This document shows positions 27,289-49,831 of a DNA stretch of 64,000 nucleotides, piece by piece. Origin of the DNA: Calditrichota bacterium (GTDB lineage Bacteria > Zhuqueibacterota > Zhuqueibacteria > Thermofontimicrobiales > Thermofontimicrobiaceae). Each line of letters opens with the position of its first letter. The first letter of the stretch is position 1. The stretch lies in contig JAADFU010000147.1 of assembly GCA_013152715.1 (NCBI GenBank), positions 2,501-66,500 on the forward strand, read 5' to 3'. The position numbers were made by a program, and so were the translations under genes. The notes beneath the pieces are model-generated. The model did no database searches. It saw only the letters and a list, made by a program, of their open reading frames with translations, and was not told the origin of the DNA.

Positions 27289-27699
27289 ATGAAAAAAAGG
27301 AAAAGTGTAAGGAATTTTGACGGCGATTTAACCAAAATACCAGTGATCAGAAATTGGGTCGTTGATGAGTTAGGCAAATTTAAGGTTGCTGATTCAGAAA
27401 TCATTGATATTAAAGTTGCGCTGACAGAAGCTTTGTCGAATATCTTGCGCCATGCGTATGAGGATGAGTTAGTCAAGCCGATCCGGGTGAAATTGCAGGT
27501 GGATGACGACAAAGTGGAAATTGTTCTGCGCGATTTTGGGAAAAAATTTGACGCCAACAATGTCCCGAGTCCTGATCTGGAAAAAGCGTCTGAAGGCGGG
27601 TACGGCATTTATCTGATGCGAACATTGCTCGACGGCGTGGAATATGTGCCACTGGAAGTCGGTACAAAAACTGTGATGTGGAAAGATCGGAGAAAATGA
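27289..27699 (+). CDS. RsbW/SpoIIAB-like serine kinase (HATPase_c_2)
   Basis: A 136-aa GHKL ATPase. It begins after a short basic leader with LTKIPVIRNWVVDELGKF. The N-box is KVALTEALSNILRHAY, then VEIVLRDFGKKFD (G1) and GGYGIYLMRTLLDGVEY (G2), which are the anti-sigma/anti-anti-sigma kinase motifs. In known partner-switch systems this kinase binds a sigma factor or another output and phosphorylates a STAS antagonist. Its stop overlaps the first glycosyltransferase start (ATGA), putting it at the head of the polysaccharide operon. No sigma-B-type factor lies in the operon, so the output partner is not obvious. Confidence 0.88.
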   Translation: MKKRKSVRNFDGDLTKIPVIRNWVVDELGKFKVADSEIIDIKVALTEALSNILRHAYEDELVKPIRVKLQVDDDKVEIVLRDFGKKFDANNVPSPDLEKASEGGYGIYLMRTLLDGVEYVPLEVGTKTVMWKDRRK

Positions 27700-28952
27700 T
27701 GACGCACGTTTGCTTGATATTGGAGGGCACTTATCCCTATTTTGTGGGCGGAGTTTCTTCCTGGGTCCACGAAATCGTCAACGGAATGACTGATGTGGAA
27801 TTTTCTATTGTGCACTTGTATTCCGGAAAAGCGCCGGAACAGGAAAAATATCAGCTTCCGCAAAATGTGCGCGAGCTGCTGTGCCTGCCGATTTTGATCG
27901 ATAAAGATCACGCTGATTTCGAATCAATTTTGGCGCAAATTCCGGATGCTGATTTGTATCATTCTTTGTCCACAGGATTTGCCGGCTGGATCGGGACGGA
28001 GCTGAAGCGGAGGAGAATGAGGCCTCTTTTACTCACAGAACATGGCATTTATTGGCATGAGATTGAACTCGGCGCCGATGAAATCGAGTGCGGTTTCAAA
28101 GTGATGAAGATGAAACGCACGGAATTATTTTTGGGAAAAAATTGGTTTTCCTGGCTTCAATTTTTTAAAAGAATTGCCAAACAAACTTATCGGGAAGCGG
28201 ATTTAATCACGACCGTTTGCGAAACGAATCGAAGAATGGAACTGTCTGTTTCTGCAAATGCCGGAAAATGTCGCGTGATTCACAACGGCGTCAAGCTCCC
28301 GCCGATGGCAGCCAAGTCAAACTGGCAACAGTCAGCGGCTCCCTCCGTCGGCTTGGTCGGCAGAGTGACGCCAATCAAAGATATTGAAACATTCATTCGC
28401 GCCAGCGCTCGGGTGCGCAGTGTTTTTCCTGAGGCGCGTTTTTACGTCATAGGCCCCATTGAGCAGGACAGTGATTATTATTTGAAATGCAAAAATCTGG
28501 CGGAAAAATTAGGCCTGGAAAATTTATTTTTTACTGGTAGAATTAATGCGTTGAATTTTTATGCCAATCTGGATCTTGTTGCGTTGACAAGTGTGAGTGA
28601 GGGACAGCCATTCGCGCTTCTGGAAGCTATGGCGGCTGGAATTCCTGTCGTGGCAACTGATGTGGGCGGATGTGATGAAATTATTAACGGAGCAAACGAC
28701 GGTCTGGGACAAGCGGGTTTGCTCTGTCGTGTGGGCGATGTTGCCGGAATTTCCGCCGCCATGCTCCGGATATTGAAAAATCCCTCTCTCTGGCGTGAAT
28801 GTGCGCAAAATGGTAGAAAAAGAATCGAAAAATTTTATCGTTCGGAAAAGATGATTCAGCGCTATCGTCAAACTTACAGACAATTGATCGAGAAAGCAAG
28901 CACGGTAAAGATACAATCTGAAAACTATTTTACAAAAGCAAGGAGTGAATAA
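27696..28952 (+). CDS. GT4 glycosyltransferase, PelF-like (short form)
   Basis: A 418-aa cytoplasmic GT-B enzyme. The N-terminus LILEGTYPYFVGGVSSWVHE is the signature of PelF, the Pel polysaccharide transferase, and LLLTEHGIYWHE is its second conserved block. The C-terminal donor-binding half has VGLVGRVTPIKDIETFI, SVSEGQPFALLEAMAAGIPV with the E-x7-E motif, and VVATDVGGCDE. The ATG overlaps the kinase stop by 4 nt. It is shorter than PelF (about 500 aa) and lacks the insert before the donor half that the second copy at 29872 has. A nucleotide-sugar transferase; the donor is unproven. Confidence 0.9.
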   Translation: MMTHVCLILEGTYPYFVGGVSSWVHEIVNGMTDVEFSIVHLYSGKAPEQEKYQLPQNVRELLCLPILIDKDHADFESILAQIPDADLYHSLSTGFAGWIGTELKRRRMRPLLLTEHGIYWHEIELGADEIECGFKVMKMKRTELFLGKNWFSWLQFFKRIAKQTYREADLITTVCETNRRMELSVSANAGKCRVIHNGVKLPPMAAKSNWQQSAAPSVGLVGRVTPIKDIETFIRASARVRSVFPEARFYVIGPIEQDSDYYLKCKNLAEKLGLENLFFTGRINALNFYANLDLVALTSVSEGQPFALLEAMAAGIPVVATDVGGCDEIINGANDGLGQAGLLCRVGDVAGISAAMLRILKNPSLWRECAQNGRKRIEKFYRSEKMIQRYRQTYRQLIEKASTVKIQSENYFTKARSE

Positions 28953-49300: not shown

Positions 49301-49831
49301 ATCGCCATGACAGCCGGCGCCTTGAAAAGCGACCGCGATAAATGTTTTGAAGCTGGCATGGATGACTATGTCACCAAGCCGATTAATGTCAATGAACTGG
49401 AAGGGGCGTTAAAAAGAGTCAGGGTTCCTGAAAAAACAAAACTACGCGCCACACGAAAAAAAGCGCGAAAAGGAGAAAGTACGGAAGAACAAAGAGAAGT
49501 GATTGTGCAATCAGCGCTTGATGAATTGAAAAGTTTTGACGAGGATGGCGCTTTCCTGAAGGAAATGATTCAAATTTATCTGGAAGAAACGCCGAAGCTG
49601 TTGGCTCAATTGACGGAATCCATGAAACTGAAAAAAAAGGAAGAATTCACTCGCGCGGCGCACACTTTAAAATCTTCGAGCGCAAATCTGGGCGCGATGG
49701 CGCTTTCGGAAATGAATAAGAAGTTGGAAAAGAAAGGCAGAGAAGGCGACATCGACGGCGTGAGCGAAGAAGTGGAAGAAGTCAAAGCGGAATTTGCTCG
49801 CGTGAAAGCGGCGCTGGAGAAATTTTTGTGA
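43343..49831 (+). CDS. Giant hybrid histidine kinase: twelve PAS, HisKA-HATPase, two REC, HPt
   Basis: A 2162-aa protein with no obvious transmembrane helix. Twelve PAS modules fill residues 1-1500, each closing with a DITERK/DISDRK-type phrase. The kinase core follows: His1525 in SHEIRTPLNAV, N-box NLLGNAVKFTE, DSGIGIPKDRM, and GGTGLGLVISKRL. Receiver 1 has D1816 (VDMQMP), receiver 2 D1960 (MDVQMP), and an HPt has H2107 (AAHTLKSSSANLG). All phosphorelay residues are intact. It follows the TPR exporter by 38 nt and ends in a terminator, so it is probably the last gene of the locus. No matching DNA-binding output is adjacent; the lone receiver at 36718 is a candidate target. Confidence 0.95.
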   Translation: MENLFKALFEKSKDAIFVADEEGKILKTNPQAKAQFGSNGKLIGGKFLSLFASSDFEELEDNFKQIKENGELVFDSAMRKADGNVIPVEVSSQLIDVKKRIYQYVVRDISLRKEKEKALLENQRTLKRILENVQTGILIVDASSSRIVDVNRNAIQLIGAPKDRIIGEVCHHFVNINNVAMKKFGMQIDRQETELITANGESIPILLTITQIQLNGRKHFVESLVDIRLLKEQATQIKQQSEELNQIFNTAADAMRVIDLNFRTLRINQTFEKNMHVKAEKVIGKKCYDTMKHDGCHTQNCSLKKLLSGETERVDREVEIRRLDGSSFWAILTAVPFKDHEGKIRGIVQNYKDITERKQAEEQLRINEKKLRDIFDNIQDVYYRTDADGIILEISPSITRYTGEVDGEIIGKRVTDFYLDRRERVRFLKALKAEGRVADFVVQLKNEEGKIVHVSVNARLLKEKNGQVIGIEGFLRDITQRVEVLKRIEQEKNRTQQYLDVAAVIMLVLDKQGSVKMINKRGCEVLGYSEKEILNKTWFDHFVPDYLSKRTKEIFYEILNGENEFYRYSEGKVVTRSGEIRIVGWHNTVIRDENGEIAGILSSGEDITEKQKALVALRESENKFKSIANAAQDAILMMDLEGKISFWNEAATRIFGYQPEEALGKELHKLVVPPQYYENYRQGFKKYRKTREGDAFGKLLELTAFKKDGTEFPVELTLSNAEIDNERHTVGIIRDISDRKVAEDALRESEKRYRTIFNNTGTAMLLVDEDKTILFANNEFAKFAGLPLAEIIEHKKFTDFILPEDRPRMEEYHRQRRQKSGSAPRNYGFSFVSATGEIRDMYLTVELLPGTKTAVASLIDITERKRAEKLLQKNEALMRSTLESTADGILVVDKYGEVKNYNKRFVKLWRIPQEQLDSNDDKVLLEYVMSQVKNSDEFLKKVQKLYQSKETSLDLIEFKDGRVLERYSCPLIQGDEVEGRVWSFRDITETKRAEQVIRESEAKYRALYDNAVDPIIIFDKKTHQILDCNETAVQVYGYSKEEFLRMTPHQLHPLEEYDIVEKNIQTNTTESYYHHVTKDGRIMQVEIHTGPVIYGDREAWLSLVRDISDRKKAEDAQRESEQRYRAVVETSLNGICMADADENLVFVNDAFAEMLGYEPDELIGMNFSEFTDPEEFERMREQTEHRKQGKSSIYETVLIDRDGNPEYVLVSASPLYDKEGTFNGTMGVFTDITDRKMALEALRESEERYRAVVETTSSGIGIADKNETLTFVNPGLAQILGYEPDEVVGKSLADITFPAEYKKFTKETRQRKKGEHSSYETVLKRSDGSPVNVWVNASPLFDADGNFESTLAIVTDITERKKMEEAIAYERNLLHLLMDNVPDAIYFKDAEGKFLRVNQAQARNLGIDDPAEAIGKHDRDFFSEEHVAKAAEDERKILRTGKLLINRIEQVKRPDGWKMWVSATKVPLHDAEGKITGIIGISRDVSEIIKIQEELKIKNMELDKALVKAEAATQAKSAFLANMSHEIRTPLNAVIGMTGLLLDTPLTDEQLEFVETIRSGGEALLGVINDILDFSKIEAGKIDLEYIPFDLRECVEDCLDLQASKALNKGIDLAYFIEPETPTHIVGDITRLRQILTNLLGNAVKFTEKGGVVVSVSAEKLPGEKNRCKFLFKVKDSGIGIPKDRMDRLFRSFSQIDTSTTRKYGGTGLGLVISKRLTEMMGGKMWVESEVGVGTTFSFVIKAEIKHEKLRREKREVVLDVLHNKTILIVDDNDTNRKILHLQTKSWGMKPTSAETPIKALEWIKQGEKFDCAIVDMQMPEMDGLRLSREIRKYLDAKQLPIIMLTSLGKKPDKELLDQINFVSFMTKPIKQSQLFNILQEIFIGKPVSVKKKKDSSRTFDRKMAQKFPLRILLTEDNLVNQKVALRILDRMGYRADVAGNGKEAIESLERQQYDVILMDVQMPEMDGLEASRIINERWTDSRPKIIAMTAGALKSDRDKCFEAGMDDYVTKPINVNELEGALKRVRVPEKTKLRATRKKARKGESTEEQREVIVQSALDELKSFDEDGAFLKEMIQIYLEETPKLLAQLTESMKLKKKEEFTRAAHTLKSSSANLGAMALSEMNKKLEKKGREGDIDGVSEEVEEVKAEFARVKAALEKFL

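What the first reader, a model, noticed from the sequence alone, without database searches (positions are those of the whole stretch)
27289..49831. Pel-like exopolysaccharide locus with a built-in partner-switching control module
Seen: one co-directional run encodes two PelF-like GT4 enzymes, an epimerase, a PelG-like protein, a GT-C-like protein, a DUF2194-type deacetylase lipoprotein and a TPR/barrel exporter. Interleaved are an RsbW-like kinase, a PP2C phosphatase, a receiver, an HD-GYP-STAS fusion and a giant hybrid kinase. Several neighbours overlap by 1-4 nt. Known: canonical Pel clusters are controlled through PelD and c-di-GMP binding; partner switching normally controls sigma factors. 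Inference: here c-di-GMP turnover and partner switching control polymer synthesis directly, replacing PelD. No sigma-B-like factor is in the locus, so the kinase's output may be a transferase or the export machine.
Basis: partly seen in the sequence, partly recalled or inferred. Interest (0 to 1): 0.85.

Follow-up and report, generated by a model that had tools for sequence, protein, structure and literature searches.

The report
Pel-like polysaccharide locus lacking PelD
This is a real, conserved gene cluster that probably makes and exports a sticky Pel-like sugar polymer, in which the usual cyclic-di-GMP sensor is missing and a modified HD-GYP protein, here carrying an on/off phosphorylation tag, appears to take its place.

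Summary
Profile searches, fold predictions and synteny show one co-directional locus: RsbW kinase, two PelF-type GT4s, UDP-HexNAc 4-epimerase, a divergent PelG, a GT-C-fold membrane protein, GAF-PP2C, receiver, GAF-HD-STAS, a DUF2194 protein homologous to the solved de-N-acetylase PelADA (all catalytic residues kept), and a TPR/barrel exporter. The block recurs in order in other KSB1/Calditrichota, Ignavibacteria and Kryptonia. All six genomes of the phylum that carry the HD protein have it in this locus.

PelD is replaced: no HD-type locus has it, while 12 of 19 canonical PelG loci in the same phylum do, with no HD protein. But 'c-di-GMP turnover' is unlikely. Lys225 of HD-GYP phosphodiesterases is lost in all 39 HD proteins examined (23 of 26 background HD-GYPs keep it), and 11 Balneolaceae genomes with this locus type have no GGDEF protein. 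The HD protein is the regulatory core (38 of 41 adequately covered loci, about seven phyla); kinase, phosphatase and STAS are a diderm-side add-on. Most likely STAS phosphorylation switches the HD protein, which gates PelF/PelG.

New variant of a known kind: Syp already shows partner switching inside a polysaccharide locus.

The parts
27289..27699 (+). RsbW-type serine kinase / anti-sigma-like ATPase
   Evidence: HATPase_c_2 3.5e-26; N-box E..N..H and G boxes intact and conserved in L009, L012, L028
27696..28952 (+). PelF-type GT4 no. 1 (short form)
   Evidence: NCBIfam PelF 323 bits, cut-off 100; E-x7-E motif kept
28954..29868 (+). UDP-N-acetylhexosamine C4-epimerase (WbgU/WbpP/PelX group)
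   Evidence: phmmer to PDB: WbgU 4.9e-67, WbpP 5.4e-64, 6wjb 3.7e-62; found between the two PelF genes only in the window, L008 and L009
29872..31482 (+). PelF-type GT4 no. 2, full DUF3492 form
   Evidence: DUF3492 7.7e-48; NCBIfam PelF 161 bits, cut-off 100; fused to the PelG homologue in L011
31486..33129 (+). divergent PelG (MOP-fold exporter) with an extra ~100-residue N-terminal helical domain
   Evidence: 7/36 homologues hit PF16933; model pLDDT 85, MATE/WzxE/MurJ fold
33126..35105 (+). GT-C-fold membrane protein, family without a Pfam model, present in nearly all related loci
   Evidence: profile family of 68 ORFs; model pTM 0.87, STT3/DPY19/ArnT fold; no conserved acidic residue in the expected active-site loop
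35115..36698 (+). GAF-PP2C (SpoIIE-type) phosphatase
   Evidence: SpoIIE 1.5e-54, GAF; DVGGD, DVSGHG, TDG and DD motifs kept
36718..37110 (+). stand-alone receiver
   Evidence: Response_reg 2.1e-31; phospho-acceptor Asp kept
37376..39514 (+). GAF-HD-STAS protein: HD domain at about 38426-38935 (K225 is M, D183 is S, D305 is E in PmGH numbering), STAS at about 39176-39511 with DSSGLG Ser656/657
   Evidence: HD_5 1.5e-24, STAS 3.2e-22; key-residue counts; STAS alignment
39511..41367 (+). PelADA-type (CE26-like) polysaccharide de-N-acetylase lipoprotein, DUF2194
   Evidence: DUF2194 1.1e-80; B. cereus PelADA 9zau 1.5e-46 with DD, HxxxH, P, R and HxxD residues identical
41364..43304 (+). TPR/beta-barrel outer-membrane exporter, PelB/PgaA-like by architecture
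   Evidence: TPR families; homologue fused to DUF2194 in L012, whose barrel hits PgaA_barrel weakly
43343..49831 (+). hybrid histidine kinase: about 11 PAS, HisKA, HATPase, 2 REC, Hpt; possible phosphodonor for the receiver (inference)
   Evidence: a homologue sits in the same place in L098

Best explanation
The locus encodes a Pel-like, probably HexNAc-based exopolysaccharide machine in which the PelD/PelE control pair is replaced by a cytoplasmic GAF-HD protein derived from HD-GYP phosphodiesterases and probably no longer hydrolysing c-di-GMP. Proposed mechanism: the epimerase supplies UDP-HexNAc; PelF1/PelF2 polymerise; the PelG homologue, aided by the GT-C-fold protein, exports; the PelADA homologue deacetylates; the TPR/barrel protein passes the chain out. 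The HD protein docks on PelF/PelG and permits synthesis. In this lineage its fused STAS domain is the switch: RsbW phosphorylates Ser656/657 (off), and the GAF-PP2C, driven by the receiver and perhaps the hybrid kinase, dephosphorylates it (on). Shown: gene content, homologies, predicted folds, conserved order, PelD/HD exclusion, intact partner-switch residues, altered HD catalytic residues. Inferred: docking, direction of the switch, who phosphorylates whom, polymer identity.
For: Pel machine: PelF cut-offs passed; PelG family and fold; PelADA homology with the full catalytic set; epimerase group. Replacement: HD gene in 38 of 41 adequately covered PelG-prime loci and PelD in none; PelD in 12 of 19 canonical PelG loci of the same phylum and HD in none. 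Altered HD: K225 is M, Y or L in 36/36, M or F in 3 more; background HD-GYPs in the class keep K in 23/26; K225A and D183A abolish PmGH activity (PMC4159591). c-di-GMP not needed family-wide: no GGDEF in 11 of 11 Balneolaceae genomes. STAS is fused to the HD protein (window, L008, L009, L028, L098) or the adjacent ORF (L011, L012, L099, L100) in nine of the ten loci that have it. Kinase, STAS and PP2C residues intact. No SigB/F/G over the cut-off. PelF2::PelG-prime fusion in L011.
Against: No binding or phosphorylation data. Metal ligands H189, H221, D222, H250 and H276/277 are kept, so some HD chemistry, perhaps on another nucleotide, is possible. D305 to E is conservative (L098 keeps D), and PmGH D305A retains some activity (PMC4159591). 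Bacillota HD proteins mostly keep D183. L029, L034 and L035 have the machine without a nearby HD gene. In L030 the STAS ORF is not next to the HD gene. G000 does encode two GGDEF proteins, so c-di-GMP input is possible here. The PelA-type hydrolase (GH114) is missing from this copy. The GT-C-fold protein has no counterpart in the Pel systems I know.
Confidence: 0.58

Rival explanations
1. The HD-STAS protein is a c-di-GMP receptor (binding without hydrolysis), a direct PelD analogue, and the partner switch modulates it.
For: G000 has two GGDEF proteins, G058 two, G056 two over the cut-off. DvhD shows an inactive PAS-HD-GYP protein serving as a c-di-GMP receptor in place of LapD (PMC13090378). 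An apparently intact HD-GYP protein (REC-PAS-HD-GYP) lies 2 kb upstream of the locus (23227-25371).
Against: The same HD gene persists in Balneolaceae with no GGDEF at all. R314, a c-di-GMP contact in PmGH, is not conserved in the diderm group. Window Y285 is F.
Confidence: 0.3
2. One reading: the HD-GYP domain degrades c-di-GMP locally and RsbW acts directly on a transferase or the exporter.
For: HD metal-ligand histidines retained; GAF inputs; all genes in one operon-like run.
Against: K225 and D183 lost; no GGDEF in Balneolaceae; STAS tracks the HD gene, not the transferase or exporter genes.
Confidence: 0.12
3. RsbW controls an unrecognised sigma factor elsewhere, so the module is transcriptional and only co-located.
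For: Classic RsbW role; several sigma-70-family proteins in G000 score against SigBFG below the cut-off.
Against: No SigB/F/G over the cut-off; the STAS is fused or adjacent to the HD protein within the polymer operon in every phylum member that has it; a STAS ORF sits directly before PelD in five canonical loci.
Confidence: 0.12

Closest known systems
Gram-positive pelDEA(DA)FG of Bacillus cereus and pelABCDEFG of Pseudomonas (PMC7112168, PMC13254593)
   Same: PelF, PelG, PelADA deacetylase with identical catalytic residues, epimerase commonly nearby; GH114-type hydrolase gene in most related loci
   Different: No PelD and no PelE; HD protein and GT-C-fold protein instead; two PelF; partner-switch genes in the operon
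Vibrio fischeri Syp locus with SypA/SypE (PMC4517449)
   Same: STAS protein plus serine kinase/phosphatase encoded with a polysaccharide locus; output not known to be a sigma factor
   Different: Syp machinery is not Pel; SypE is one response regulator with kinase and phosphatase domains; SypA is a stand-alone STAS, not fused to a GAF-HD protein
SiaABCD and HptB-HptR-HsbA-HsbD partner switches (PMC8457831)
   Same: A phosphorylatable STAS-type protein controls a c-di-GMP-pathway protein and biofilm
   Different: Target is an active diguanylate cyclase and the module is not part of a polymer operon as here; no HD protein
DvhD of Desulfovibrio vulgaris (PMC13090378)
   Same: Catalytically inactive HD-GYP protein replacing a GGDEF-based receptor in a biofilm output
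   Different: Controls adhesin proteolysis; membrane-spanning; lacks the HD motif, which is kept here

Membership tests
Pel biosynthetic system | PelF GT4 | tested here: met
   Two proteins over the NF038011 cut-off
Pel biosynthetic system | PelG exporter | tested here: met
   Window protein alone gives no PF16933 hit; 7/36 homologues do, one over the cut-off; MOP fold
Pel biosynthetic system | PelA/PelADA deacetylase | tested here: met
   9zau 1.5e-46, catalytic residues identical
Pel biosynthetic system | PelA hydrolase domain (GH114-like) | tested here: not met
   Not in the window locus; present in 37 related loci; one GH114 protein elsewhere in G000
Pel biosynthetic system | PelD: GAF plus degenerate GGDEF c-di-GMP receptor | tested here: not met
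   No PelD-profile hit in any HD-type locus, while the same profile finds PelD in 12 of 19 canonical loci
Pel biosynthetic system | PelE | tested here: not met
   Profile from the L081 PelE-like ORF has no hit in HD-type loci
Pel biosynthetic system | PelB-like TPR porin | tested here: inconclusive
   TPR plus predicted barrel; no PelB-specific model tested
Pel biosynthetic system | PelC outer-membrane lipoprotein | not tested
   No candidate ORF noticed; no PelC profile was run
Pel biosynthetic system | Partly deacetylated alpha-1,4-GalNAc product | not testable with these tools
   Needs biochemistry
Partner-switching module | RsbW-type kinase with intact N and G boxes | tested here: met
Partner-switching module | STAS antagonist with phospho-serine | tested here: met
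   DSSGLG in the window; the DSS serines kept in all 11 STAS sequences aligned
Partner-switching module | PP2C phosphatase with metal-binding Asp | tested here: met
Partner-switching module | Cognate sigma-B/F/G factor | tested here: not met
   No SigBFG over the cut-off in 8 genomes
HD-GYP c-di-GMP phosphodiesterase | HD and His metal ligands | tested here: met
   H189, H221, D222, H250, H276 in 36/36; H277 in 33/36
HD-GYP c-di-GMP phosphodiesterase | Catalytic K225/D183 pair | tested here: not met
   K225 in 0/36; window D183 is S; controls 23/26 K and 22/26 D
HD-GYP c-di-GMP phosphodiesterase | Hydrolysis of c-di-GMP | not testable with these tools
   Needs an enzyme assay

The most novel reading that the evidence does not exclude
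A PelD-free, c-di-GMP-independent class of Pel-type secretion system, spread over about seven phyla, in which a repurposed HD-GYP protein is the universal control subunit, with a phosphorylatable STAS domain added in several diderm lineages.
Probability: 0.42. Interest if true: 0.77.

Novelty: new variant of a known kind. Interest (0 to 1): 0.63.

Why it matters
Pel is a model biofilm polymer, and its control by PelD and c-di-GMP is treated as defining. A second, widespread branch that has swapped PelD for an altered HD-GYP protein, including in Balneolaceae where no diguanylate cyclase was found, would show that the synthase is gated by exchangeable receptor modules. It gives a natural comparison for asking what the receptor does to PelF and PelG. 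It also offers an enzyme-to-effector conversion to test, and cultivable hosts (Gracilimonas, Fodinibius, Balneola) to test it in.

Tried and rejected
The first genome-contig scan, with 33126 alone, found nothing; the scan with the PelG-homologue alignment gave 48 loci. The Pfam PelD_GGDEF search over the phylum rang nowhere, controls included, so it says nothing; it was replaced by a profile built from the PelD-like protein of L081. ORF 26693-27070 was rejected as spurious: no family hits. An early reading that D305 is always E was dropped after L098 showed D. Treating the GT-C-fold protein as an active transferase was not adopted: no acidic residue is conserved in the expected loop, though the alignment there is weak. 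Canonical PelG loci were checked as a rival home for the partner switch: they have STAS ORFs but no RsbW or PP2C within reach.
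Full report
**Observation.** The window lies in a 4.15 Mb assembly whose nearest named relative here is candidate division KSB1 bacterium 4484_87. From 27289 to 49831 all main genes run on the + strand with short gaps or 4-nt overlaps. Pfam and NCBIfam identify an RsbW-type ATPase, two PelF-type GT4 proteins over the PelF cut-off, an epimerase, a GAF-PP2C, a receiver, a GAF-HD-STAS protein, a DUF2194 protein, a TPR protein and a giant hybrid kinase. 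The two membrane proteins at 31486 and 33126 hit nothing relevant.

**The two unnamed membrane proteins.** Homologues of 31486 were collected from genomes of the phylum and, with names, from GTDB contigs. Seven of 36 match PelG (PF16933) and no other family, and the one in G040 passes the curated cut-off. The AlphaFold2 model (pLDDT 85) has the MOP fold of MATE, WzxE and MurJ. It is a divergent PelG with an added N-terminal helical domain; I call it PelG-prime. The 33126 family, without a Pfam model, occurs in almost every related locus. Its model (pTM 0.87) has the GT-C fold of STT3, DPY19 and ArnT, but no conserved acidic residue was found in the expected active-site loop. It may be a non-catalytic subunit; this is unproven.

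**How Pel-like is it?** The DUF2194 protein matches one PDB entry, 9zau (1.5e-46). That entry is B. cereus PelADA, a de-N-acetylase of alpha-1,4-GalNAc (PMC13254593). The DD, HxxxH, Pro, Arg and HxxD catalytic residues are identical in the alignment. The epimerase groups with WbgU, WbpP and the 6wj9/6wjb epimerase, which I recall to be PelX of P. protegens. A GH114 gene, the class of the PelA hydrolase domain, is present in 37 of the related loci but not in this copy; the genome has one elsewhere.

**Conservation.** L005/L008 (KSB1 4484_87) and L006/L009 (Caldithrix) keep RsbW-PelF1-epimerase-PelF2-PelG-prime-GTC-PP2C-REC-HD-STAS-DUF2194-TPR. L012 (Ignavibacteriae) and L028 (Kryptonia) have the same order without the epimerase and with GH114 in front. 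In the phylum, six genomes (including this one) carry a close homologue of the GAF-HD protein, and in all six it lies in this locus.

**What the wider family shows.** In 41 loci with enough flanking sequence, 38 carry an HD protein (my count). Balneolota loci have HD-GH114-GTC-DUF2194 with a histidine kinase and receivers in front, and no RsbW, PP2C or STAS. Bacillota (Sulfobacillus-type) loci have HD and GH114 and none of the partner-switch genes. L011 (Caldilineae) has HD, STAS and a single 1253-residue PelF2::PelG-prime fusion. L030 (Bdellovibrionales) has an RsbW::PP2C fusion plus STAS. On the PelG-prime tree the partner-switch label needs three changes. So the HD protein is the core and the switch is an add-on.

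**PelD is replaced.** Nineteen stretches around canonical PelG (PF16933) genes in the same phylum were read. Twelve carry a PelD-like TM/GAF/GGDEF protein, usually with a PelE-like TPR/HEAT protein, and none carries the HD protein or the GT-C-fold protein; no HD-type locus has a PelD or PelE hit. Five canonical loci have a STAS ORF directly before PelD. STAS domains therefore sit beside the control subunit in both branches.

**The HD domain is not a normal phosphodiesterase.** In PmGH, alanine at K225 or D183 abolishes activity (PMC4159591). Among 36 locus HD proteins K225 is M (20), Y (14) or L (2), and M or F in three more. D183 is S in the window, and S, Y, R, K or W in diderm relatives; Bacillota mostly keep it. 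D305 is E in 36/36, with one later exception (L098). Background HD-GYPs from the class keep K in 23/26, D183 in 22/26 and D305 in 29/33. The histidine and HD metal ligands are kept. Eleven of eleven Balneolaceae genomes with this locus type have no GGDEF domain at all, although the search rings in 8 of 14 control genomes. Ten of those eleven have the HD gene in the locus (L029 does not). In those organisms the HD protein can hardly serve c-di-GMP. In this genome, with two GGDEF proteins, c-di-GMP sensing remains possible. DvhD is a precedent for an inactive HD-GYP c-di-GMP receptor (PMC13090378).

**The switch.** RsbW N-box, PP2C Asp motifs, receiver Asp and the STAS serine are intact across the diderm loci that have them. 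No SigB/F/G protein passes the curated cut-off in eight genomes tested. STAS is fused or adjacent to the HD gene in all loci but L030, so the simplest reading is that RsbW and PP2C set the phosphorylation of the HD-STAS protein. By analogy with SypA/SypE (PMC4517449) and SiaC (PMC8457831) the unphosphorylated form would be active; this direction is inference. The literature searches I ran found no paper linking DUF2194, STAS or HD-GYP fusions to Pel control, within the open-access library only.

**Verdict.** A real, conserved Pel-like locus; PelD replaced by a converted HD-GYP protein; partner switching added in some diderm lineages. New variant of a known kind.

Noticed in passing
window 23227-25371 (+): REC-PAS-HD-GYP protein with the usual catalytic residues (D183, K225, D305), 2 kb upstream of the locus; a likely active c-di-GMP phosphodiesterase.
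   Followed up: partly
L081, L113, L114, L116, L117: A STAS ORF (two STAS domains where tested, L081) directly before PelD in canonical Pel loci of the same phylum, with no RsbW or PP2C nearby.
   Followed up: partly
L011:3482-7240: Single 1253-residue ORF fusing a PelF2-type GT4 to the PelG homologue.
   Followed up: partly
L012:17487-21512: DUF2194 deacetylase fused to TPR and outer-membrane barrel in one 1342-residue protein; Balneolota homologues of about 1300 residues look similar.
   Followed up: partly
L030:2196-3866: RsbW-type kinase fused to PP2C in one ORF followed by a STAS ORF in a Bdellovibrionales bin.
   Followed up: partly
L081:5773-8046 and homologues in L113-L117: About 760-885-residue protein family between PelE-like and PelF genes of canonical loci, no Pfam hit.
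   Followed up: no
L037:16084-18973: Sulfobacillus-type locus also holds GT2, a methyltransferase and an exosortase EpsH homologue.
   Followed up: no
window 20256-20900 (-): Weak sigma-70-family match (E 1.4e-5 to SigBFG) about 6.5 kb upstream, on the minus strand; possibly an ECF-type sigma factor.
   Followed up: no
window 49999-52230 (+): M23 peptidase with a type IX secretion sorting tail right after the hybrid kinase; a 1183-residue GH114 protein on contig C48 shares similarity with it.
   Followed up: no
L101 (G056:C91:1-4000): IS66 and IS1595 transposases lie directly upstream of the RsbW gene, where GH114 sits in L012 and L028.
   Followed up: no
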